From Isoetes taiwanensis (Eukaryota; Streptophyta; Lycopodiopsida; Isoetales; Isoetaceae), in NCBI GenBank assembly GCA_021234155.1, contig JAJEKV010000336.1, positions 62,001-126,000 of the forward strand: a stretch of 64,000 bases of DNA, read 5' to 3'. Position 1 is the stretch's first letter; every line of letters starts with the position of its first letter. The notes under the pieces are model-generated. The model was given only the letters and a program-made list of their open reading frames with translations, made no database searches and was not told the DNA's origin. Shown here piece after piece: positions 5,111 to 24,274 of this stretch. The translations under genes were made by a program, and so were the position numbers.

Positions 5111-6512
5111 ATTTTGTCTCAATACATGACTATATTTTCCAAACAATGCATCCACATTAGGAACCCCAAATTGACTCTTTCAAAAATACCCACAGCTGTT
5201 AAGTAGGATAGGAAAGAAAACATCCACCTGTTCTTATTTTGACCAGCACAATTATCTAGTTGCAAGAGGAGCTTTACGGGGTAGATCCGAGGTTTTATGC
5301 GAGATGTTGAAGCTCCAACATGTTCATTAGGTCCATTCCTCCTAAATCTTGCCTTGCTAAACTTTTCAATACTATTAGGGGTTCCATCCAACAATGCACT
5401 ATGTAGTGCCGGCTAGTTGTGGGATCCTGTAGGTGACCATTGTAACCCTTCTCATAGTTTCTTAAACACCTCATGATACTCCCAATGTGAAAATCTAGAC
5501 CATCACTCCACAACTCTAAATTGAAATGGCCATAATAGGTCTGATCGCCCATGCAATATTGCTTTGGAGTCATTGAAATCTGCAAAGGGTATGATCTTCC
5601 ACATGACTTAGGAATGTACTTGAATTGTGGAAGACAAGTCTTGTTGGTCCATTTTATCATGTATAATACATAGATAGTTATTAGGTTCCATTCGGATAAG
5701 GTCCTCCACATCCAATAAGTTGATCTACATGATAGTTGATACGTCATATGGTCCTTCATATGTTCCCTTATCTTTGCCCCTTAGACTTGGTTGCCTGTCT
5801 TATCTAGTGTCTCCTTCAACTTAGCACATAAATTGCACTTGGCAAAGTTGTTTTGAAGTTGCTATGGTTACATGCTTGAAATGCTTATTCCATAGCCTAC
5901 TAAAACTGGGCTGGGATATAGAGGCCACTCCAAGTTCCCGAAGCAATGCATTTATTTCCTCTAATATGCTCTTCTGGGTACAATGGGATGGCAATCTCTT
6001 TTCAACAATAACTCTACCCTGTTCATCCTTCTTACTCTTATGTGGCATGTTTTCTGCATTGAAATCCACATATCTAGTTTCAAATATTTTCTTTGCAGCT
6101 ATAGTTCTTGAGGTAGGCCTTACCAGGCCAATGTTCTGATATCAAGGTATTGTATTGCTTGTGTTCTCCTCTTCATGACATCTCTAACCTTTGGTGAAAC
6201 TTTGGTATTGTCAAGCCAAAATTCACGAACCTGACATTTGATTGAATCATCGATTCTATTTGATCTTGGCATCCTTCCTGCCAAAGCCCATACATTTGCT
6301 CCACTTAATGACATTATCTTCCTTCTTGCTGCAGCTTTGGATAAATTTCTTGGCTGTATCTTTAGCAATTTTGAAAAAACATTCTTGTTTATATCTCCTT
6401 TTTTTCCAGCAATCATTGATAACAGTGAATGTTTTGCAGCCAATTTATCTTTGCTATTAGCAGACTTTACTTCTTGAAGCCCATCTTTCAAGTTTCCGAT
6501 CATTGATTTCAT
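5070..6512 (-). pseudogene. decayed transposase-like protein, element 1 (DUF7869-type)
   Basis: Read from 6512 leftward, the N-terminal part contains GANVWALAGRMPRSNRIDD and VREFWLDNTKVSPKVRDV, typical of the N-terminal region of this family. Around 5870-5910 comes SISQPSFSRLWNKHFKHVTI, then a Cys-rich FAKCNLCAKLKETL near 5810. The core follows: LQLDNCAGQNKNRWMFSFLS near 5230-5290 and GIFERVNLGFLM near 5160-5200. The VGHTHED block expected next is deleted, and VDALFGKYSHV resumes at about 5120-5150. Several frameshifts make this a pseudogene. The conserved D of LQLDN and the missing HTH/D block are the presumed metal-binding positions of an RNase H-like nuclease; that role is inference. The family name is from memory. 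Confidence 0.75.
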
Positions 6513-9832: not shown

Positions 9833-10677
9833 CGAATTCGACAAGGCCTAGAAGAAAGTCGAGCAAGCAGAAGCAGAGGAGGGAATTGGGATGGTCGGAG
9901 AAGAGGAGAAGTGATTTTCAGGGACTTTCTAATTTTCACGGCCGTCGGATGCAAAATTAAAAAATCTAATGGTTGAGATTAAAAATAGCTGACGTGGCAC
10001 GACATGTGGCATAGCTAGGAATGCAGGAAATCGGAGTTGGAAAACAAATTCACGAAAATCACAAGTCTCGCTAAGCACTTCGACAACTGGAGTTGGACTG
10101 TAGGCTTTCTCGATCACACTGCACAGGGAGTACAGACAAAATGCCTTTTTCCTGTGCAACCTTACAGAAAATCGACTGAACATTTGGTCTACTTGATCAT
10201 GCGTGTGGCCAACAAGTAAGAAGCCAACCTTGACCTTTCAGAAGATACCTAATTGGACCAGCATTGCACAGTAGGCAAATAGAACTTGGTTTTTGTTTTC
10301 CCTGCTTGTATTGTCTAGCTGTATGTAGAGCACTAAAGGCAACTTCTTCGTTGCCAGAAGAATCTTGTTCAGTATTGTCACCGTGAGGTTAGGATCACTG
10401 TGTATACTCTGCACTTTACCACGCCCTGAAAAACTAAAGCACCAACTAGATGCAACTTCAAGAAGTCGGCTTCATCTAAATCTTTAGGAACATTTATAAA
10501 ATGAGGAAGGAACGTCTTCTTTTGATTCATGCCATCTACTGCCACAGACATGTATTCAAGAGGCCTCTCCAAAGCTTTTTTTCTGTGTTTTCCAAGCTTC
10601 TTTCTTTCCAGGGCTTGAGCCTCTCTGTGTTCCTATAATTGTTGAGACATTTGTCAATATCACAGTCACTTGCGTTG

Positions 10678-10896
10678 CTATGCGCGCATAGACACAATGA
10701 CACGTATTTGGTTTCTCGCTATGTGCGCATAGACAAGTGACCAGGGTACATGAAGCATGCTATGCGCGCATAGACAAGCGACCAGAAAATAGGAAGCACG
10801 CTATGCGCGCATAGACCAGAGTCCTTGCTTTACAAATTGTGCTATGCGCGCATAGACAAAAGACAAATCTAGTTAAACTGTGTTACGAGCACATAG
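10678..10896. repeat. 41-bp phased palindrome array A (CTATGCGCGCATAG)
   Basis: Copies start at 10678, 10719, 10760, 10801 and 10842, with a decayed one at 10883: every step is exactly 41 bp. Four of the six are perfect 14-bp palindromes. The 27-bp spacers have diverged strongly; only two adjacent spacers are clearly related. The array fills the intron just upstream of the transposase exon that starts at 10632. Confidence 0.9.
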
Positions 10897-11156
10897 ATAT
10901 GGGAACAGTACTTTGAAACAAAGAACGTACTTTTCTCGGGAAGATTATTTGTCATGGACCTTTTCTCCTTCAATACAGAATAGGTAGAATATACCGAGAA
11001 CCGGTGCCTTTCTGGGATCCTAACACAAGGCCCCCAAAATTGAATCATTATGATTTTTTTTTAATGGTTTGTTGGCGAAAACCAAATCCATAAATCAGTA
11101 CATGTTAGTGGGTTCAAAAGTTTACAAACCATGTCTAGTTAACTAATACGGTTCAC

Positions 11157-11345
11157 CAACATATTTTTCTAAGGTGATAAGACAACATTGTTTTATGACA
11201 TGGTATTGAAACATGGCAATTTTAATTGGTCTCTGTAACAATTTAAACTATAGGGTTCTTCAACATATTTTTATAAAGTGATAAGACAATATTGTTTTAT
11301 GACATGGTATTGAAACATGGCAATTTTTATTGGTCTATGTAATAA
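11157..11345. repeat. about 106-bp tandem duplication near the left end of the TIR element
   Basis: The segment starting AACATATTTTTCTAAGG is repeated about 106 bp on with few changes, including a shared GACATGGTATTGAAACATGG. It is an AT-rich subterminal repeat of the enclosing element. Confidence 0.7.
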
Positions 11346-11895
11346 CTTAAATTATATGATATGAACTACTATTTAGTATGTCAAGTTTATTAGACTAGTA
11401 TTTGATCACATCTATCTTCTTCAATATATTGATATGGTAATTTTAAGCGCATATTTCTCATGATACTTTACAATGATTAATCATCAATACACAACGTGGT
11501 AAATAATTCTAGTTTAAATATGCTAATATGGCTTTTTTTACCTTGTTTTTCTCCATGGTACTAAAACATAATTATGACAGTTAGTTTTTCTAACAACTTA
11601 AAATATCTAACACGAACTAATGCTTAGTATTTGAAGTTTAATAGAATGGTATTTGATCGCATTTATCTTCCTCAGTATATTGACTTGATAAATTATTTAG
11701 ATATTTGTAGCAATCAATGGACAAGATATACCTAGTTTCTAATATACGATATTTGATAGTGCTTCCTGACCTAGTAATATAATATTAGAGCATGATATTT
11801 GGCCTTAATTAGCACAATAAACTTAAATGCTTTGAACATGTTTGATCACAAACCATGTTGTTACATGTAATGATTATTAATTGGTATTCGTTTAT

Positions 11896-13096
11896 TTTAT
11901 TTTATTTTATTTTATTTTTTTTTTGAAGAAACGGAGGTACCACTTTTTTATTTTCTGAAATAAGAGTACATGCAACAGCACAGGAGGAGATTACTATAGG
12001 AGCTCACACCTCAACTTCTTCATCTCCCCCTGGCATGCTTATTTAAACTCCTAATGAGTCAGATAGGAAATACATACACCAAAATACTCCTGAATAGCCC
12101 TTGATGAAGTAGAAAAGTAAACAAGAACACGAAACCTGTTTTGAAGTTGCTCCGGAAGTAAGCTGCAGTATGATCCTTAATGACATCGAAGGCATGTCGT
12201 TCGATACAGCGATCCACTCAAGCATATTAGTACTTGAGTTTTAACTTAAGCATCAGCACTTAAGTATCTAAAATGCTCAAGCTTATCAGTACTTGAGCAT
12301 GGATGGGCATATCAGTACCCTGGTAAAAATGTTCAAGTTAGAACATTAAAAATCCCTAGCTGTGCATAATGTCACTGTGCCATGTAGACCAATCAGCCCC
12401 ATCGAATCTTTTGCCCCTCCCGAGAAAAAGATAAGCCAGCTTCCTCTTGGAATATCAGACCCTAGTAACTAAAATGCTGCATTGTGGGGATTATGTACTC
12501 ATCATTCTGGTGCACTACGAGAAACCCAAGAACGCCTTCAAATCAAAACTTCACTGCCTTGTCTCTTAATCTGCTTTACCAATGAACTAATTCTTCCCCG
12601 CTAGCAAGGAAAAGGAGCAAAATAGACACGAAAGGCTTACTTTTCTATTTCTGACTTATGGTATTCCCCGCCTCAAGTTACAGTCTAAATAACTTCACAA
12701 ATTTGATACATCTTCTTTCTTTGCCTTGGTGTATGCATCTATAGAAAGGAGCCACGTTAGTGGCTGCTAAAGAAGCGATCCCTTCTACACCTTATGGGCC
12801 AGCATCCCAATTGGGCCATACCTTTTCAGTGTGTCAATGAGACATAGAACATACTGCCAAGAAAGAATACCTGGTGCATCACATTAGGGCCGTCTGAAGA
12901 AAAATAGACCGGCACCGTAGACAGATATGAAATGCTGCTGATAGAAGGAACAAACCTCTTCGGCCCTGCTAGCATCCATCGTTGAAAAAGGAGCATGATT
13001 CCGCTGTACTGGGGCGACCTAGAGCACAGGCGGCCGCCTGCCCTAGCCGCTGTGTAGCAGCGCCTTCGCGTGGCCGCCCATCAGAAGTGTTAAACC
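11896..13096 (-). mobile_element. 1.2-kb retroposon with poly(A) tail and 12-bp target duplication
   Basis: The perfect 12-bp direct repeat GTATTCGTTTAT flanks it at 11884-11895 and 13097-13108. Right after the left copy lies a T-rich (TTTTA)n/poly-T stretch, which is the poly(A) tail of a minus-strand retroposon. The 5' end (13096) is GC-rich. A short minus-strand frame around 12950-12985 begins MDASRAEEVCSFYQQHF but soon hits stops. It could be a processed pseudogene or a LINE-mobilised noncoding RNA. The source gene was not recognised. Confidence 0.75.
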
Positions 13097-14064
13097 GTAT
13101 TCGTTTATAAAACAATCTCACTCCAATATTTATCATTGTTTTTACTTAGGAGAAAAAAGAAGACAACATTTGAAAATGCTCATTTACACTTCTTATATTA
13201 CTAGGAAATTGTGACTACAATTCTGAAGGACAGATTATATAGATGAACAACTCTTTCAATGCAAGGATTCTCTCATTCGCTGAATTCCCATCTATTGCAG
13301 CATTTGTACTACATGACTCTGCACCAAAGAGCTTGCTGGATCTGCATACACAATGTTGAGCAAAAAAATTCAGCATAAAAAAAATAAACTGAACAACAAA
13401 CATCAAACTCTGTGTTGTGCAGGAACAAACATGCATAAGTTGAAGGAACAATTGTGCAATTGTGAAAGTGCACAACTTTCAAACTTCAAGCTAAAGAAGC
13501 TGGTATAGAAAGTTTTTTTTTTTCGAACCAAATGCAATTACTCCTCGAGTTGTGGGTTTAAAAAACTCTTTACAAAAAATATGAATGCAAACATACCCCA
13601 TCGTTCCTCAATTCCACAAGTCAATCCCATATAAGCTCCACCAAGGCATCCTGCATGTTTTATAAGTATCTCTTCAAAAAGTAATAAAGATTATTCATAC
13701 AAAGAAATATTACCGCCATTTTGCCAAGATGATTTTGCCTGAAAAATGAGCAAATGAGTAGGTGCACCTTAGCCATTTAACAAGGACTGCAATTTCGGCA
13801 TTTTATCATAAATGCCACTACATAGAAAAAAAAAAAAGATGGGCTTAACTCCATGATGTCCTGAAATTACATTTACATCTTTATGATAAAAAATATGTCA
13901 ATTACTAATCATATGCTCGATCAAGCAAGCCGTAAATATAATCAAACATGCAATACTTGCTGCATTGGCTAATCAAATGACATAAGGAAAGCAGGATAAC
14001 AATCAGAGATCATGTTTTAACACCTTATCTGCCATATTTCATCCAAAGATCCAGGCTAACACAA

Positions 14065-15928
14065 ACAGCTAGAGAACCCCTGACGTTCTCGAGCACTTGG
14101 GTGGTAGGGAAGGCTGCAGAATCCCAAACCCTACGAATTCAATAGGGTTTAAGTATCGGGGCACCAAAACAGCTTCATTTGTTAATCCAACCCGTCAAAA
14201 TGGTAGCTCGTGGTCCGAGGAAACATCTTGAAAAAGAAAAACTAGACATCCACTGCACGAATGTGCCATACCCCAAATTCCCCCCTTTCTCGACGCAAGG
14301 GCGCGGCAAGGAGCAGGACAAGTTTGGATATATAGTACCTGGGGAGGGTGTTTTCTTCCTCCCCCTTGGGGTTTCTCTTCAAGCCCTCGAGAGAAGCCTG
14401 CATGCAAGTTCTCGATCACTTGGTGGTAGGGGAAGGTCGCCAAATCCCAAACCCCCTACTTAATTCAATAGGGGTTTAAGTATCGGAACATCAAAACAGC
14501 TCCGTTTGCTAATCCGACCGTCAAAATGGTAGCTCATGTCTGAGGAAACATCTTCGAAAAGAAAAACTAGACATCCACTGCACGAATGTGCCAATCCCCA
14601 AATTCCCCCCTTTCTCGACGCAAGGGCACGGTAAGGAGCAGGACAAGTTTGGATATATAGTACCTGGGGAGGGTGTTTTCTTCCTCCCCCTTGGGGTTTC
14701 TCTTCAAGCCCTCGAGAGAACCCTGCACGCAAGTTCTCGAGCACTTCGGTGGTAGGGAAGGCTGCCGACTCCCAAACCCTACGAATTCAATAGGGTTTAA
14801 GTATCGGAGCATCAAAACAGCTCCGTTTGTTAATCCGACCGTCAAAATGGTAGCTCATGTCCAAGGAAACATCTTCAAAAAGAAAAACTGGACATCCACC
14901 ACACGAATGTGCGAATCCCCAAATTCCCCCCTTTCTCGAGGCAAGGGCACGACAAGGAGCAGGACAAGTTTGGATATATAGTACCTGGGGAGGGTGTTTT
15001 CTATGGGGTTTCTCTTCAAGCCCTCGAGGGAACCCTGCGACGCAAGTTCTTAAGCACTTAGGTGGTAGGGAAAGCTGCGAATCCCAAACCCTACTTAATT
15101 CAATAGGGTTTAAGTATCGGGGCACCAAAACAGCTCCATTTGTTAATCCGGACAGTCAAAATGGTAGCTCATGTCCGAGGAAACATCTTGAAAAGAAAAA
15201 CTAGACATCCATCGCTTCTTAATGTGTTAATCCCCAAATTCCCCCCTTTCTCGACGCAAGGGCGCGGCAAGGAGCAGGACAAGTTTGGATATATAGTACC
15301 TGGGGAGGGTGTTTTCTTCCTCCCCCTTGGGGTATCTCTTCAAGCCCTCGAGAGAACCTTGCATGCAAGTTCTCGAGCACTTCGGAGGTAGAGAAGGCTG
15401 CCGAATCCCAAACCCTACGAATTCAATAGGGTTTAAGTATCGGAGCATCAAAACAGCTCCGTTTGTTAATCCGACCGTCAAAATGGTAGCTCGTGTCCGA
15501 GCAACATCCTTGAAAAGAAAAACTGGACATCCACCGCACGAATGTGCCAATCCCCAAATTCCCCCCTTTCTCGACGCAAGGGCACGGTAAGGAGCAGGAC
15601 AAGTTTGGATATATAGTACCTGGGGAGGGTGTTTTCTTCCTCCCCCTTGGGGTATCTCTTCAAGCCCTCGAGAGAACCTTGCATGCAAGTTCTCGAGCAC
15701 TTCGGAGGTAGAGAAGGCTGCCGAATCCCAAACCCTACGAATTCAATAGGGTTTAAGTATCGGGGCACCAAAACAGCTCCATTTGTTAATCCGACCGTCA
15801 AAATGGTAGCTCATGTCTGAGGAAACATCTTCAAAAAGAAAAACTGGACATCCACCGCACGAATGTGCCAATCCCCAAATTCCCCCCTTTCTCGACGCAA
15901 GGGCACGACAAGGAGCAGGACAAGTTAA
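14065..15928. repeat. satellite-like tandem repeat, about 320-bp unit, nearly six copies
   Basis: The landmark GGGTTTAAGTATCGG occurs at about 14145, 14472, 14793, 15106, 15429 and 15749, giving periods of 313 to 327 bp. Each unit contains GTTTGGATATATAGTACC, which includes a TATA-like core, a C-rich CTTCCTCCCCCTTGGGG block and a CCCAAACCCTA block. The array ends abruptly near 15927. Open frames on both strands across it exist because the unit length is often close to a multiple of three; they look like by-products. Confidence 0.9.
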
Positions 15929-16984
15929 CAATGTTTAGGAATTTCATATGTGGAAAAGAGATGGCAGTCTTGGGATTGTCTCTTAAGGGTATTAACTGTT
16001 ATGAAGGAAGGTGCAGGAAAAAATATCTGCTTCTTCTTGATTGAAGAACCTTCTATTTGAGGTACTTGAGCTTAGTTCATCTCCTTTTGTTTTGTAATCA
16101 TAAAAATCTATTATGTTTACTCTAAGTTCAATCACTTGCCATAATGTTAAGTTGGCTGCGATGTTTAGCTTTACATTTGGAGCGGTTTAATAAGCTAGCT
16201 ATAAAATTATTTTTTACCTTGATATTGTAGTAGTTTTTTGAGCTAAGCATTATAAAATTGTTAGTTAAGATGGTGTCGATGGTATCTCTATATTTACATA
16301 TGAGTGGTCATTATTCCTGCGCTAAACCTCACAAAACAATTGCCAATTTCTTGGCTAAATGACATTACAAGGTTTCTTACAATATTAAGTAACGGAGGCA
16401 AAGCATTCACCTTTGGTTTTTGACGTTACACTAATCACAAATTTCTAATATTGCTACGAAGTTACAAGCTAGATATCCAATTCACTACAAGGTTTCTTTT
16501 ATTGGGAAGCAACACATTGATTTTAATCTATGTCATTAGTGACATGTTGTTTATTTTTCTTTTGTAAAATTTATTGATAAGGCTCATTTGATTCTACGAA
16601 GCCTTACACGCGTATGCTTCCTATATATTTAGAAGCTTTGCATCTTTATTAAGGCTCAAAACAATTGCATTTGGAAAAATACAATATTAACAACATGATT
16701 AACACAAGAATAAACTATTAACGAGCATAGTAAACAACCACGTAAAGAAAACCTTAGCATCTTTGCAAATTTTAACATGGTTCTCAAACTAATAAGAAGA
16801 ACGCGGTAGAACAAATTTGTGACAACTAGCATGTAAACGCATCTGAAATTATGATACTAAAAATGTATATAGAAAAATCATTCCATTAAATTAATAATGA
16901 TTTTCAAAGATCATCATAAACTCTAGAATTCATAAGTTAAATATAGTACGAACTAGGAATGGTTTTGCAAAATCAAGATGTGCT

Positions 16985-17640
16985 TAAAACACATCTTCTA
17001 AACTATTGATGATTTCAAAAAATAATTGTACGATTGTAGAATTCATGTAATTAAACATGATATGAACTAGCAATGATTTTGCTAAAAAACTATACACTTA
17101 AAAACAATCTCACAAATTAGTTATGATTTCTATAAATCTTTGAATTAGTACAAAAAATACGATATGAAGCACTGTTGGTCTTGCAAAATCAATATATGCT
17201 TAAAATACATCTTCTAAACTATGGATGATTTCAAAAAACTATTATATGATTATGGAATTCATGTAATTAAACATGATATAAACTATTAGTGATTTTGTTA
17301 AATCAATCTACACTTAAAAACAACCTTATGAACTAATAATGATTCCTAGAAACTAGTGTAAAATTTTGAATTAGTACAAAAAATATGATATTAGCCACTA
17401 CTGGTTTTTCAAAATCAATATATGCTTAAAACACCTCTTCTAAACTATTGATGATTTCAAAAACCTATTGTACAATCGTAGAAGTCATGTAATTAAACAG
17501 GATATGATTTTGATAAATCATTGTACATTAAAAAACAATCATACAAACTAATGATGATTTCTAAAAACTACTGTAAATTTATGAATTAGTACAAATAATA
17601 TGATATGAACTACTATTGATTTTGCAAAACTAGGAAGAAC
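16985..17640. repeat. AT-rich tandem repeat, about 220-bp unit, three copies
   Basis: The phrase CTTCTAAACTAT(T/G)GATGATTTC recurs at about 16995, 17211 and 17437. The flanking text, including AATTCATGTAATTAAACATG, also repeats. It is a subterminal repeat of the TIR element. Confidence 0.75.
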
Positions 17641-18602
17641 ACATGATTTTTCTTTACATTTTGTATTGTCGTATAAAAAAATCATATATATGCTGGTTTT
17701 CATGCTAATTTTTTATACAAGTTCATTTTTGGGGGCCTTGTGTAACAAGATTGAATTCTTGCTTCCGCAATCTTAAGAAGTAAGAGTAGGATATGAACGA
17801 CTGACTTGAAGACTGGAAAAGATCTTTGTACATGATATAGACTTCTTTCTTGGTAATGTTGTCCGTAAGATGATGAACAGGACTGTTGGGTAGTCGCTCA
17901 CAGTTTAAGTCAAAGAAGCCCACCAACCATGCTTTTGCTTCCAAGCAATGCACATCAAATACTTTCTTTGGGTGACAGTAGTCGTCAATGCACGGATTTC
18001 TGTCTAACCGTTTTTGTACCCTTGGCATGCGACGACTTCTAATGGCATGTATTCTTTTGAAAGCCACCTGGGAAACAGTTACGTTCAACACGTAGTATGA
18101 AAAACTGTCGCCTCGTTCAGGCCTCACGTGATATGCTAGGTAGGATTCCTGGTCACCTTTAGACATTGACAAGAAGGATTGTCTTGTTTGCCTTAAGGAC
18201 GAAAAAGGGAAGTTGCTGAAGAGGTCTCTCTGCAGAATCTATTATGTTTTGCAACGAACGGTGCAATTCCTGTAGAGGTGAAGGAGTTTCAAAAATTGAG
18301 TGGGTGGTGTGAGTAGGTGAGGCCGAGGAAACACCTTGTCGGAGTGAGGGAGATGGTGTTCTAAACACAGAGGAACGCTGTAGAACGTGTGTTGACGAAG
18401 GAGTTTGAAAGGAGGTAGACCCACGCATTAAGTGTATTGGCGACGGAGAAACAAAGCTTCCAGATGGACTATCAAGGGACGGTATGTCACGTAAATCTTT
18501 GTCTTCACTGCTTTGTGTGGGTGTGCTCAACCCGCCTCGAGGCAATAATGAAAGATTCGCAGGCGGAGATAAAAAACTTTTTCTTGAGTGGCTGCCGTCC
18601 AT

Positions 18603-19141
18603 GCTACAAATGGATAAAGACCTGTACTCAGAAACAAATATGCACCACACCTACTGTGCATGTACTAAGTAAGGAAGTACACTAACTAATTAAAATAGTA
18701 TTAGTAGAAGCTTGCCTATGCGCCAAGATAGAGGGTGTAAGATGAATCGCTATTGCCCATGCGCGCATAGACAAGATGTCATAAATTACTGTGAGAGATA
18801 AACCTGTTACCTACTTGAGCACGGGGAAGACGTAATAATAAAGTCTATAGCTCAAGCGAAGGAAGACAAGATAAGATAAACAACTGTAAAGGAAGAGCGG
18901 GAAATACGAAGAGACTTTGTGTGGGGTTGACACTCCATAAAGGATTGCATGAAATGACACGCTACACTCTTCATGTATAATCTCATAGAAAATATCCAAG
19001 TACTAACGTAGACAATAAATAGAAAAAGGGCACATTTCGCATCGAGAGGGCACCGAAGCTCCCTGGCGCCGACCTGCCTTCACACTCACTCGCTTTTTTA
19101 CATATCGAAGTCTATAAGAAGTCGCATAGACTCGCTTGCAA
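18603..19141. promoter_or_regulatory. divergent promoter region of element 2, with two palindromes 41 bp apart
   Basis: This 540-bp gap separates the ATG of the minus-strand transposase (18602) from the first ATG of the plus-strand methyltransferase gene (19142). A perfect-but-one palindrome lies at 18757-18770, and a decayed copy starts at 18716, exactly 41 bp away. A weak TATA candidate, CTATAAG, precedes the plus-strand ATG at about 19112. Shared control of both genes from here is inferred. Confidence 0.6.
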
Positions 19142-19335
19142 ATGGCAGGTGGAAGGTACGTCAAGATCTTAGCTGCTAGTTAATTAGCTCATTTTTTTTT
19201 TTTTTTGTGCATTATTTGCTTAATTAGGCTGCCTCTAAAACGATTAAAAATGTCAATTTCTTAAGTATTTCTGGCCTTCTTCCTATGTTCTAGATATGTT
19301 TTGTTTGTTTTAGGTCATTTTGTGATTGGGTTTAT

Positions 19336-19641
19336 CTATGCGTGCATGGGAACAAAGGTTTTTTTAGTGCTTGTCCTTGCTTAGCCTATGCGTGCATAGA
19401 CACAAATCTTTTTTCTTAAGCTTTGCCTATGCGTGCATAAATACAAAGCTTTTTTTCTCAAGCTTGACTATGCGCGCATGGGCTTCAGCCTTTTTTTTAA
19501 TCTGATCCTGTGCGCGCATGGGCATAACACTTTTATTGAAGGTCGCCTATGCGCGCATGGGCTCAAAGCTTTTCTTTTGTAGTATGCCTATGTCACTATT
19601 GGGGATAAGATTTTCTGAATTGGTTGGCTATGCACGCATAG
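19336..19641. repeat. phased palindrome array B in intron 1 of the methyltransferase gene
   Basis: Copies of CTATGCGYGCATRG start at 19336, 19386, 19427, 19468, 19508, 19547, 19588 (decayed) and 19628. After the first step of 50 bp the steps are 41, 41, 40, 39, 41 and 40. Spacers are T-rich and diverged. The intron has no other evident function. Confidence 0.9.
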
Positions 19642-21270
19642 GCAAACGATGTTTTAATACTTTACTGTTCTTAATATTTTAGTAAGAAGAGAAGCCTTGC
19701 ACGGGGTAGCCAGGATGATGAAGGTGGACCCTTCTCAGAAGGCAGCCAGGAAGAGGAGGACGACGAAAGACAAGAGTCAGGATGCAGTTCTGGCTCCAAG
19801 TCAACACCAATTTCAGGAGGCCGAAGATGGCTCCTATTTTTGTAAGGATCAGCAATGGTTGCTTGTCAGGGATACCGGTGATCCAGCAACTGCGCATTTT
19901 TTGTATTTATACATTTGTTCTGAGACCGGCAAGCAAACACAAGACCTGGAAAGCTTCGGAAGATGTTGCGGGCTCGTGGATGCTGATATGTTTGGTATGT
20001 TCCACATCAAGTGCACAACCACCACCAAGGGCAGTGAACATGTATATTCTGTGGATAGTTCATTTTTTTGAGCTGAGTTTGTCTTCTCCAGAAGATATGC
20101 AAGGCTACATTCAGGCAAGAATGAAGAGTAAAATTGTAAGTGTTATTTTCCTGCACGAGAAGACTTTACCAACATGTTTGGTCTATGACATCATAGGTTT
20201 TGTTTGCAGGATCTTGTTCCTATACTAAAGGATCTTCTTTTGAACAAGGATCCTCTGTTAAGTTCTAGCGCACCTCCTGCTAAGCTGCTGAAGGATGCCA
20301 TGCCTCAAGTTGCCAAGATAATCATCCCCAGAATCTCAGAAACTGTTGAGATGGCAACAATAGATGAAGAGGAACCTTCGGATCCCGAATCTGAAGAGGA
20401 AGAGTTTGAGGTTGAAGTGGTGGAGAGGCCAAGAAAAAAGAAAGCCAAAAGAAATTATTACAAGGCGGGCCTGGTGACTGACACTGCTCCACCAACTAGC
20501 AAGGCATCAAAAAAAGCCACTAAGGTAGTTTTGCCTCCAGCACCGGGTACAAGGATTGCCAGTAAGGAAAAAGACATGACTTCTAGGAAGCTCGAAGAAA
20601 TTGAGCTGAGATGTCGTGTGCCTGGGATCATGCACCTGCAGGTTGATTGTGTTAAGTTGTGCCCAAAGGATGAGTCTGGTAAGAGACCTTTGCAGGTGAG
20701 AAAAATTTACTCTGGTCATTTGTCTGCTCTTAAGGAACGCATAAGGGACAGACCAAATGCAGCTACAGCACCGCACATTTGCATTGTTGACCCTTCCTAG
20801 TGCACGGAAAAGGGATTTGTTTGTAAAGGAAGAGGATGAAAGCTACAGGTATTTTGTTTTGGGTGGCACTCACAGCTTTAAGGCGAGGAGGCAGCTTTAT
20901 AAAGAAACTAAAGAACACTGCTTCTCTCAAATATTTGCATTTGTTTACGTGGGTGTCACTGACTCTGAAGCCAAGTTGCTTGCTATGAGCCACAATGTGG
21001 ACAATGAATATCGGATGAGCATGAGCTTCACTGACAAAATTAAGCTTATGCATAAGGAATACGAGCTTTTTAGGTCAGAGCGTAAGGGTGACAAAGATAT
21101 AAAGGATGATCAAAATCTTTATCTGGCTCTTAAAGAGCAGTGTGCTACAGAGTGCTGCTTAACATACAACTCCACTGATGCCAGAGCATCTCTTGTGAAG
21201 TACGACAACTACTTCCAACTAGCTTTTAGGCATGGACGTGTAAGATAACTTTCTTCTCCAAGTTCTTTGA

Positions 21271-21284
21271 CCATGCGCGCATAG
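21271..21284. repeat. single palindrome copy in a methyltransferase intron
   Basis: CCATGCGCGCATAG, one mismatch from the consensus, lies in the 89-bp intron between the exons ending at 21239 and starting at 21329. Confidence 0.8.
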
Positions 21285-21828
21285 CTGTTCAGTTTTCTTA
21301 CCTTTATTTCTTTCTTGTTCCTTTTTAGGTCTGGGAACTTCAAGAAATTTTTTTTGATATGTTTGCTGAGGGTACACTGAAATCCAAAGGAAAGGTGAAG
21401 GATCCAAAAAGAAAAAAAATGGAACCTGCAAAACAGAAGGACATGGGCATCATGGTTTGGAGGGAAATGCAGGGTTTAAAAAATACAGAAAAAGTTTGTG
21501 AGGTGCTGCAGAAGGTGGTCAATGGCCACTTTACCTTGGAAGAGATGCAGGGTGAATTCAAACAGTAAGTTAAATTCCTGATCCAAAACACTAGCTAGTT
21601 CTTGTTGGTAGTTTACGTTCCAGAGTTTTTTAAGACTCCTTACTTTTGCAACCAAAAGGATTGTGCACTCTGTCAGTAGCAACTCATGGTCCACCTTAAC
21701 TGTGACACATGGGAAAAAGTTAAAGAATTATACCCTACATGGTCGTCAGATGAAAAGATAAACCAGTACGCTTTGAATTTCACGAACTGGGTAAAATTTG
21801 TTGTTCCCCTACTTATCTTCTTGTGTGC

Positions 21829-21997
21829 CTATGCGCGCATAGCACTACAAGAAGTCCATTACTGTGGTGCTATGCGCGCATAGGCTGACACTCAGAACTT
21901 TTGTTTTCTTCTTCTTACTAAAGTTGTTTTCTTGTTGTGTGGCTATGCGCGCATAGCACCACAAGAAGTCTATTATTGTGTTGCTATGCGCGCATAG
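21829..21997. repeat. phased palindrome array C in a methyltransferase intron
   Basis: Four perfect CTATGCGCGCATAG copies start at 21829, 21870, 21943 and 21984. Each pair is 41 bp apart, and the pair is duplicated with a 114-bp shift. All lie in the intron between the exons ending at 21790 and starting at 22057. A decayed copy (CTATGCGTGCAAGG) starts at 22509 in the next intron. Confidence 0.9.
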
Positions 21998-23229
21998 GAA
22001 GACACTTTGCATTTTCGTCTTCTTGTTCTTACTAAAGCTGTGTTCTGTGGTTTTAGAAAAAGAAGGACCCGATGCCGCCAATGTTTCTTAACATGGTTAG
22101 ACTTGCTAAGGAAGAGCGCGCCAAGCTAAAGAAGAAGGAAGAAGCTGAGCAAAGTTTTGTACCAACAGAATTTGAAAGGTTTGACATGTTTGGCCAGAAT
22201 TGTTTATACCAGATATATCATGGAAATTGTGTCAAACTTGACCATACGTTGAAACCTGGCAATTATTCGTTGTGTATTGCTGATATTCCTTATGGGTTCA
22301 AGCTACCTGATAGTTGAGGAGATGATTCTCCATTTACTTATGCTGAATTTGATTCTTTCTTGAGACATTTCGTCAAAATAAATACTGCACCGCTTTGAAG
22401 GATAGTAGTTTTTCATTCAAGTAATCAGGTAGGTATGGTACAAGCTGCAATGAGAGAGCACTGCAAAGCTGGTTACGAGCCAGCCATTTGGTAAGTTATT
22501 TCTTTTTGCTATGCGTGCAAGGCTTGTAAATGTTTGGGAACAGATGCACATTGGTTACCACAGCATTGGTGAACAGAGAAGCATTTTGCACTATAATACT
22601 GCTGGAATGGATTTGCGTAATGCGTTTCAATTCCAAGCAGTCATTCAGAAATTAACAGACCCAGTACACCAGGGTCGTATAGTCAATCCTTATCAGGAGC
22701 CTCAACAGCTTATTAATACCCTTTTAGAGATGTTTTCACATCCAGGTGACTGGGTCGTCGATGCCTTCTCAGGGTTAGGGACCACCTTGGCTTGTGCTTT
22801 AAAAAAGGGTCGCAACTGCCTTGCAATTGATTTTGATAAGGATTCTGTGGTTTATATGAAATCCAGAATAAGTTCTCTGCACAGCCTGCTAGATGAAAAG
22901 CAGGAGGTTGGCCTTAAGGATAAGGATGGTAATCCCGCAGCTTCAAGCTCAGAGCCTTTGCCGCCACTCACCGGGAACACCAACGATCCGGCCGAGTTCG
23001 TCGAGCTTGTTCCTGTAGAAGAGCTTCAAAAGGTTGTGGAAGAGAAGGATGCCTCAGACACTGACGAAGTTAATCCTGACAGCTCTACTAAGGTTCCATC
23101 TCCTCCAAATTCTGATGATGAACTTGTTCACGAGGATCCTCCTCTTGATATTTAATGTGTGCTAAAAAAAGGACATTTTTTTAAGTGCCTATATTATTGT
23201 ATTAAATTACTGAAATATAACTTTGTTGT

Positions 23230-23243
23230 CTATGCGCGCATAG
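23230..23243. repeat. last palindrome copy, downstream of the methyltransferase stop
   Basis: A perfect CTATGCGCGCATAG lies 75 bp after the stop codon. No copy was seen to the right of it, so it marks the minimum right extent of element 2. Confidence 0.85.
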
Positions 23244-24274
23244 ACATTCTTCCTTCCCTTTGTATTTTTGTGTCGTATGAAAGTGCATCTTCTTAGTGTG
23301 TCTTAACACAAAATCTGTCGCTCGCTTTTAGAATGCAACTTTATTTTTTGGTATTTGTTTTTTTTTAAATGGTCAAAACTGTCGAATTTACGTTTTTTTG
23401 AAAAAGAAATATGCAATTGCACCACAGGTCATTAGTGCGTTTGCACCGTCACCTTGTTACCAAAAAACCTATTTGGAGTAATCTGAGAGTGTACTTTTTT
23501 CCAAGTTAAAGAATTCATGCATATTAAGGAACCCAATATGCTGGTTGATAACTCTGGAGCTAGCATAAAGCTTTGCTCTATATGAGAGCAACTTGACAAA
23601 AGCTGCATCACTCTACAGTAACGTGCAACATGAAAACAATTAGCTAATAGTCTCATTAAGATGAAAACAATTAACTGATCGTCTCCTAAGCGAACTGGTT
23701 GGTTCAAAGCTTCATTAGATGAAGCAATCCCTTAGCCTGTAGCAGGGTACCTAAAGTTTTTGTCTTCAGTCTTTTATTAATTTCAGGAGGCGTAATCAAT
23801 GTATGAAAGTAAATCCTAACCCTAATCTATAACATGGCCTATGTGCCACCTATGTTTGACACGACCATCTATGCTGCATAACCTCATAGCTATAAGGTAT
23901 CTTATGTTACTTTTTCATTTACTTCAATCTATCTGCGCCGCCTTCTCACTCACATTTACACAAACAATTTCACACCTGCCCTACTGGTATTCCAATTTTG
24001 CATTTACATAATTCTACTTTCAAAGGTCCAGAATACTAAGTTGATATAAACATTTTGGATTTTCTCACTAATCTTTTTACTTTGCATTTTTCTTTTTACT
24101 TATCACTTTTCTTTGATTAGAAAAGAAAAACCCTTGCTTTAGGTATGTAGAACGTTTTTCAATAGTTTTTGGATAGAAAAGTTGCATATAAGTTACAAGT
24201 TTATAGTTACAAGTCATTATAAGTCGTATAATAGACATTTGAGCAGACGCGCCACATCCTATATTATAATGTTA
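23244..24274. other. intergenic; no gene seen
   Basis: AT-rich DNA with T runs. The right end of element 2 should lie in the first part, but I found no inverted repeat matching its left side. Confidence 0.4.

What the first reader, a model, noticed from the sequence alone, without database searches (positions are those of the whole stretch)
10678..23243. A perfect 14-bp palindrome repeated about 23 times with 41-bp phasing
CTATGCGCGCATAG occurs nine times exactly and about fourteen times with changes between 10678 and 23243. By chance a given 14-mer is expected about 0.0002 times in 64 kb. Neighbours are spaced 41 bp in most clusters (five successive steps of exactly 41 at 10.7 kb; 39-41 at 19.4 kb; 41 at 18.7, 21.83 and 21.94 kb), close to four helical turns. 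Spacers diverge while the motif is kept. This points to arrays of a DNA-binding site for a dimeric protein on one face of the helix.
Basis: seen in the sequence. Interest (0 to 1): 0.92.

Follow-up and report, generated by a model that had tools for sequence, protein, structure and literature searches.

The report
Transposon's private palindromic protein-binding site arrays
A jumping gene in what looks like a quillwort genome scatters copies of one perfect DNA palindrome through its non-coding parts, and relatives of the same jumping gene use different palindromes, which suggests that each family carries a protein that recognises its own DNA by its own password.

Summary
The palindrome is real: 20 copies with up to 3 mismatches (9 exact), all inside one interrupted DNA-transposon copy (about 10036-23458). 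The genome, whose size matches Isoetes taiwanensis, holds 1,551 exact copies against 0 for the reversed control. The element has terminal inverted repeats (AACAAGGTGAC...), 4-bp target-site duplications and two divergent genes: a DUF7869 transposase-like gene and a gene joining a ParB/sulfiredoxin-like region to a beta-class DNA methyltransferase. None of the 20 sites lies in an exon of my gene model; they sit in introns, between the genes and in the 3' region. Copies without recognisable genes keep termini plus sites. In another copy the same intron carries unrelated spacers but the same 14-mer, so this is no plain satellite. The key finding: a relative with a diverged methyltransferase carries GTATAAATTTATAC instead (12,556 copies against 17); weaker cases are CTATTCCGGAATAG and, in a possible further family, ATCGCGGCCGCGAT (961 against 0). 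I read them as subfamily-specific recognition sites of an element-encoded protein, most likely the ParB-like methyltransferase, working like the VANC anti-silencing system of Arabidopsis VANDAL transposons but built from different parts. Binding, methylation and anti-silencing are inferred. The window copy is broken.

The parts
10036..23458 (.). DNA-transposon copy (left end lost near 10036, interrupted by a nested element 11023-17743)
   Evidence: Right end CCTTGTT aligned with 9 other copies; 4-bp TSD in 5 of 6 complete copies elsewhere; left limit is where similarity to L016, L022 and L027 stops
10678..10855 (+). Array 1: five palindromes, 41-bp steps, in an intron of the transposase-like gene
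18757..18770 (+). Palindrome (1 mismatch) between the two divergent genes
   Evidence: position against the frames
19336..19641 (+). Array 2: seven palindromes in the first intron/5' region of the ParB-like/methyltransferase gene
   Evidence: gene model by eye
21271..21284 (+). Palindrome (1 mismatch) in an intron
21829..21997 (+). Array 3: four exact palindromes in a 114-bp duplicated intron unit
22509..22522 (+). Degenerate palindrome (3 mismatches) at the acceptor side of the last intron
23230..23243 (+). Exact palindrome in the 3' region, about 0.2 kb from the right terminus
10040..10632 (-). Transposase-like coding pieces; DUF7869 (PF25273) on two open pieces, E 1.5e-18 and 8.5e-18
17744..18602 (-). 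Upstream part of the transposase-like gene, frame broken
19142..20135 (+). 5' part of the ParB-like/methyltransferase gene, frames broken
   Evidence: start inferred by eye
20204..21239 (+). ParB/sulfiredoxin-like region (sub-threshold matches only), frame broken
22057..23155 (+). Beta-class N6/N4 DNA methyltransferase: DIPYG then DAFSGLGTT; PF01555 47.7 bits against cut-off 26.7
23425..23458 (-). Right terminal inverted repeat AACAAGGTGACGGTGCAAACGCACTAATGACCTG
11023..17743 (.). Nested unrelated element with a 22-bp inverted repeat, not part of the system

Best explanation
The palindromes are cis-acting recognition sites that belong to a DNA transposon and are read by a protein the transposon itself encodes. 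Shown: the sites sit in one element family, avoid exons, occur in arrays with changing spacers, persist in copies without recognisable genes, and are absent from diverged relatives that have a different palindrome. This is a VANC-like, sequence-specific anti-silencing system built from different parts.
For: 1,551 exact copies against 0 for the reversed control. 0 of 20 sites in exons of the window copy although exons make up 4,315 of 6,703 bp in my gene model, and 0 of 41 in tblastn-mapped exons of four other gene-bearing copies. In 7 elements with both ends found, 59 of 59 sites (up to 2 mismatches) lie between the ends, none in the rest of the 110 kb fetched for them. Six of these, of 2.7-3.6 kb, keep termini and sites but show no coding match at E<=0.1, except one weak match in L031. 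Window and L016 have unrelated spacers and the same motif in the same intron. Two loci chosen only for their methyltransferase (L036, L037) lack the motif and have their own; L030 gives another; no cross-matches within 3 mismatches in a 4 x 4 table. Genome counts: GTATAAATTTATAC 12,556 against 17, YTATTCCGGAATAR 203 against 20, ATCGCGGCCGCGAT 961 against 0. VANC precedent: short motifs that differ between VANDAL families and accumulate as tandem repeats in introns and upstream regions (PMC5735166, passages).
Against: No binding, methylation or expression data. The sites could be read by the transposase-like protein instead; an array upstream of an unrelated hAT-type gene (L025) shows that palindrome arrays also occur beside a transposase-like gene alone. 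Subfamily D is weak: 4 near-copies, a number reached in 3 of 60 shuffles, and only 3 of 50 listed D sites lie within 4 kb of a listed methyltransferase or ParB-like hit (compared by hand; those hit lists are capped at 150). The kinship of L030 is weak. The ParB-like call is sub-threshold (E 0.0089, 0.067, 1.5), the nucleotide-binding arginine is present in 1 of 5 sequences seen, and the structure model was unusable. L016-L035 were chosen because they hold the exact motif. One locus each was read for D, E and F.
Confidence: 0.55

Rival explanations
1. The palindromes are binding sites of the DUF7869 transposase-like protein, needed to assemble the transposition complex, as subterminal repeats do in other DNA transposons.
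For: Kept with the termini in copies without recognisable genes. A hAT-type element in L025 has a palindrome array just upstream of its transposase-like gene.
Against: Arrays lie deep inside the element, not only near the termini: in L022 several sites are about 4 kb from both ends, and window sites lie in introns of both genes.
Confidence: 0.22
2. A host protein (transcription factor or silencing factor) binds the palindromes and the element has accumulated them as enhancers.
For: Positions between the genes and in introns would suit enhancers.
Against: Different palindromes in related elements of one genome are hard to explain by one host factor; 12 of 13 fetched places with the 14-mer are elements of this family.
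Confidence: 0.1
3. A plain minisatellite: tandem duplication of 41-bp units that happen to contain a palindrome, with no function.
For: Units are tandem, and neighbouring units share some spacer sequence; window against the close copy L027 shows nearly equal motif and spacer conservation (91% against 88%).
Against: Unrelated spacer units with the same motif in the same intron of window and L016; motif above spacer conservation by 10 points or more in 9 of 10 pairs (two of those pairs have only 14 motif columns); single isolated sites elsewhere in the element; avoidance of exons.
Confidence: 0.07
4. The palindrome matters as a hairpin or RNA structure (splicing or processing signal) rather than as a protein-binding site in DNA.
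For: Many sites are in introns.
Against: A perfect 14-bp palindrome leaves no loop. Sites also lie between the genes and near the terminus; sites occur in copies without recognisable genes; subfamilies differ at most of the six central bases while keeping length and symmetry.
Confidence: 0.04

Closest known systems
VANDAL transposons and their VANC anti-silencing proteins (Arabidopsis; PMC5735166 passages, PMC10398659 abstract)
   Same: Short motif accumulating as arrays in non-coding parts (introns, upstream regions) of the element; motif differs between families; arrays evolve by tandem repeats with changing units.
   Different: VANDALs are Mutator-like elements; this element has 4-bp target-site duplications, terminal inverted repeats and a DUF7869 transposase-like gene. 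The VANC21 motif is a 9-mer arrayed in one orientation; here it is a 14-bp perfect palindrome. The candidate reader is a ParB-like/adenine-type methyltransferase. That VANC binds and removes silencing is shown for VANDAL; here it is inferred.
Bacterial ParB-parS and phage ParB-N6_N4 methyltransferase fusions (PMC12704722, abstract and passages)
   Same: A ParB-like region joined to a PF01555 methyltransferase, a fusion the paper reports as frequent in phages; symmetric DNA sites in arrays.
   Different: Found in a plant transposon with introns; ParB fold only sub-threshold; the GxxR box reads GTHS (window, fern), GTHR (L016), GTHT (L022), GTHG (L018). The paper's main text does not contain the words plant or transpos-.
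CcrM/RsrI-type beta-class adenine methyltransferases
   Same: PF01555 above cut-off; best solved-structure matches are RsrI and CcrM; DPPY-like box before the FxGxG box.
   Different: Catalytic box is DIPY or DLPY instead of DPPY; joined to a ParB-like region; activity unknown.

Membership tests
VANDAL/VANC | Mutator-type transposase | tested here: not met
   Pfam scan of ten gene pieces gives only DUF7869 and N6_N4_Mtase above cut-off; VANC itself was not searched for
VANDAL/VANC | Family-specific short motif in arrays within non-coding regions | tested here: met
   weak for subfamily D
VANDAL/VANC | Protein binds motif and removes silencing marks | not testable with these tools
   needs binding and methylation assays
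ParB-CTPase fold | Significant profile match or fold match | tested here: inconclusive
   TIGR03764 E 0.0089 (15.7 bits against 143.75), phrog_723 E 0.067, sulfiredoxin E 1.5; no Pfam ParB match; AlphaFold model pLDDT 42.7
ParB-CTPase fold | GxxR nucleotide-binding box | tested here: inconclusive
   R in 1 of 5 sequences: GTHS window and fern, GTHR L016, GTHT L022, GTHG L018; four of the five are broken copies
N6_N4 DNA methyltransferase, beta class | PF01555 match above gathering score | tested here: met
   47.7 bits against 26.7
N6_N4 DNA methyltransferase, beta class | Catalytic [DNS]PP[YFW] box and FxGxG SAM box in the order IV then I | tested here: inconclusive
   Order met; boxes DIPY and FSGLG (window), DLPY and FSGSG (L036), DIPY and FSGSG (L037), EAPY and FAGTD (fern); consensus boxes recalled
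Cut-and-paste DNA transposon | Terminal inverted repeats and target-site duplication of fixed length | tested here: met
   4-bp duplications in 5 of 6 complete copies
Named superfamily such as Sola (4-bp duplications, recalled) | Transposase related to that superfamily | not tested
   No reference transposases at hand; one Sola search was answered as a listing and none of its papers was opened; no paper in the library holds 'DUF7869'
Satellite/minisatellite | Motif and spacer equally conserved between copies | tested here: not met
   hardly separable for the close pair window/L027

The most novel reading that the evidence does not exclude
A plant transposon family uses a bacterial-type module, a ParB-like clamp fused to an adenine methyltransferase, with subfamily-private palindromes as loading sites. 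The protein loads at the arrays, covers or adenine-methylates the element's own non-coding DNA, and so marks it as expressed territory; diversification of the palindrome (GCGCGC, TCCGGA, AAATTT and GCGGCCGC-type cores) is driven by escape from silencing and from cross-talk between subfamilies.
Probability: 0.25. Interest if true: 0.93.

Novelty: new variant of a known kind. Interest (0 to 1): 0.82.

Why it matters
VANC-type, sequence-specific anti-silencing is, to my knowledge (recalled), described only for Mutator-like elements of flowering plants. An apparently independent system, in what looks like a lycophyte, with other genes and with thousands of palindromic sites, would mean that transposons repeatedly evolve private recognition codes. 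The palindromes are easy to assay, and several protein/site types within one genome make a ready specificity series. If the methyltransferase is active, it would also give a clean test of whether adenine methylation exists and matters in plant DNA.

Tried and rejected
Plain satellite: disfavoured on spacer comparison. Prokaryotic origin of the window: rejected (introns, 1.66 Gb genome). AlphaFold of the fern relative with a 6-row alignment: too poor to use, so no fold search was made. Phage tblastn of the fern protein: 20 records matched; the 8 shown cover only the methyltransferase part at 22-40% identity. Profile comparison of the L030 ParB-like exon with an alignment of window, L016 and fern: probability 12%, E 0.0024 over 30 columns, inconclusive; three pieces of the L030 gene have no Pfam match, so its kinship rests mainly on a GNHS box seen by eye. 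Papers: no paper in the library holds 'DUF7869'; two searches around transposon, ParB and adenine methyltransferase listed no report of such an element (listings, of which one paper, PMC12704722, was opened for passages); other searches or look-ups failed.
Full report
OBSERVATION. CTATGCGCGCATAG occurs 20 times with up to three mismatches in the window, 9 of them exact, all between 10678 and 23243; shuffled windows give 0.84 on average. In the genome that holds the window (1,658,258,908 bases, 1,110 contigs) there are 1,551 exact copies and none of the reversed control. The size and contig number fit the published Isoetes taiwanensis assembly (1658.30 Mb, 204 scaffolds plus 909 contigs; PMC8566536, passages); this identification is an inference.

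THE ELEMENT. I fetched 20 stretches of 10 kb around 13 of the 18 other clusters listed; the listing shows 50 of the 1,551 copies. Twelve of 13 places show the genes or the termini of one DNA-transposon family; L035 shows only a terminus-like 12-mer. The termini read AACAAGGTGAC...; taking the element as AACAAGG...CCTTGTT, 5 of 6 complete copies are flanked by identical 4-bp duplications (ATTC, ATAC, TATG, CACT, AATT); L034 is not. Gene-bearing copies have two divergent genes. One encodes DUF7869 (PF25273, E 1.5e-18 and 8.5e-18 on two open pieces); its QLDN and GHTHxxxD motifs look like an RNase H-type transposase core, which is inference. The other runs from about 19142 to 23155 in the window and joins a ParB/sulfiredoxin-like region to a methyltransferase (PF01555, 47.7 bits; RsrI and CcrM are the best solved-structure matches). 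The window copy is broken: its reading frames are interrupted in several places, a nested 6.7 kb element lies at 11023-17743, and the left end is lost.

GENOME-WIDE LINKAGE. The methyltransferase exon has 150 scored matches out of 2,711 candidates, the ParB-like exon 150 out of 2,404. Comparing the two capped lists by hand, 21 of the 30 best methyltransferase matches have a listed ParB-like match 1.2-2.4 kb upstream on the same strand; 9 do not (in one of these the nearest lies 9.4 kb away). The fusion is therefore a standing gene structure. The transposase exon could not be counted genome-wide (search not answered). In the one homologue search that was answered, one protein was found: 752 aa of the fern Adiantum nelumboides (29% identity, E 2.6e-62).

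WHERE THE SITES SIT. In the window copy 0 of 20 sites lie in exons, though exons cover 4,315 of 6,703 bp in my hand-made gene model; in four other gene-bearing copies (L016/L017, L018/L019, L022/L023, L027), 0 of 41 sites (up to 2 mismatches) lie in tblastn-mapped exons. In the window they lie in introns of both genes, between the genes, and in the 3' region. In seven elements with both ends found, 59 of 59 sites (up to 2 mismatches) lie between the ends. Six of these, 2.7-3.6 kb long (L020, L024, L029, L031, L032, L034; one end of L032 is eroded), show no match to the genes at E<=0.1 except a weak one in L031, yet keep 5-10 sites each.

MOTIF AGAINST SPACER. In the transposase intron, window and L016 have unrelated repeat units but the same palindrome; identity at motif columns exceeds other columns in 10 of 10 pairs of five copies, from 91 against 88% (window/L027) to 88 against 56% (L027/L016). 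The motif columns are those of the first row of each pair, and in two pairs there are only 14 of them. The logo of 136 sites extends weakly to TGY-CTATGCGCGCATAG-RCA; at the four CpG positions 63 of 82 changes are C to T or G to A, as expected for decay of cytosine-methylated copies (inference).

A DIFFERENT PALINDROME IN RELATIVES. Two loci were chosen only because their methyltransferase is about 50% (L036) and 44% (L037) identical to the window's. Neither holds the window's motif. L037 holds GTATAAATTTATAC, 7 sites within three mismatches, 4 of them exact: four in the intron before the last exon, two far upstream, one across its own stop codon. L036 holds 3 CTATTCCGGAATAG-like sites within three mismatches, none exact, in introns. 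By chance one fetched stretch (L030) holds a possible further family with ATCGCGGCCGCGAT, in part at exact 34-bp steps, upstream of a gene with a ParB-like GNHS box (kinship weak). A 4 x 4 table shows each motif only in its own locus; a search for the best palindromic 12-mer without naming it finds the same or an overlapping core, reached by 0 of 60 shuffles for the window element, L037 and L030, but by 3 of 60 for L036. Genome counts against the reversed control: 12,556 against 17, 203 against 20 for YTATTCCGGAATAR, 961 against 0. The first three motifs share the frame (C/G)TAT-six bases-ATA(G/C), with the centre replaced.

PHASING. Spacings in the window family cluster at 41, with 21, 31, 62-63 and 80-83; without 38-44 and 80-84 a clustering near one helical turn remains (27 spacings, R 0.51, p 0.008 against a uniform null, best period 10.9; the range tried was 10 to 11). 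In the L037 family, 25 of 38 listed spacings up to 130 bp are 30-33 or 61-64 bp (p 0.0004 after removing repeats within a contig, best period 10.7). The 34-bp steps of L030 do not fit. Phasing is therefore suggestive, and tandem duplication is enough to explain part of it.

MECHANISM. A site that avoids exons, survives in copies without recognisable genes, is found with unrelated spacers, and differs between relatives is best explained as the private binding site of an element-encoded protein. The pattern matches VANC targets in VANDAL transposons (PMC5735166 passages; PMC10398659 abstract). Two proteins are candidates. I favour the ParB-like/methyltransferase protein because internal arrays between the genes and in introns suit regulation rather than end recognition, and because ParB proteins and many methyltransferases read symmetric sites (recalled); this is inference. 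ParB-methyltransferase fusions are known from phages (PMC12704722 passages), so the gene may descend from such a module.

LIMITS. L016-L035 were chosen by the exact motif. D, E and F rest on one locus each plus counts, and D and F are weak in different ways. The ParB-like call is sub-threshold. No activity was tested.

Noticed in passing
window 11023-17743: Nested 6.7 kb element with 22-bp inverted repeats (ACACAAGGCCCCCAAAATTGAA), probable TAA duplication (PIF/Harbinger-like, inferred), holding 5.7 copies of a 321-bp tandem repeat and a 226-bp repeat.
   Followed up: partly
L025 7222-7471 (C23): Twelve copies of a TTTTCGCGTACGCGAAAA-like palindrome, 20-25 bp apart, upstream of a hAT-type gene (DUF659, E 8.8e-27): palindrome arrays also occur in another transposon type.
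   Followed up: partly
L030 5182-8484 (C79): Possible further ParB-like gene with an ATCGCGGCCGCGAT array, partly at exact 34-bp steps; 961 copies in the genome.
   Followed up: partly
window 5155-6099: Fragment 82% identical to part of L033, overlapping a distant match to the DUF7869 piece (42% over 33 aa at 5182-5280, E 1.6e-6): perhaps another transposon subfamily.
   Followed up: no
G000, e.g. C931:1377182-1379423, C920:391491-393818: Copies whose ParB-like region is 87-89% but methyltransferase about 68% identical to the window's: possible domain exchange, useful for finding the specificity domain.
   Followed up: no
L037 2050-2063: The subfamily palindrome GTATAAATTTATAC contains the stop codon of the methyltransferase gene.
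   Followed up: no
fern protein P0006: Adiantum relative has altered catalytic boxes (EAPY, FAGTD), so it may be inactive as a methyltransferase.
   Followed up: no
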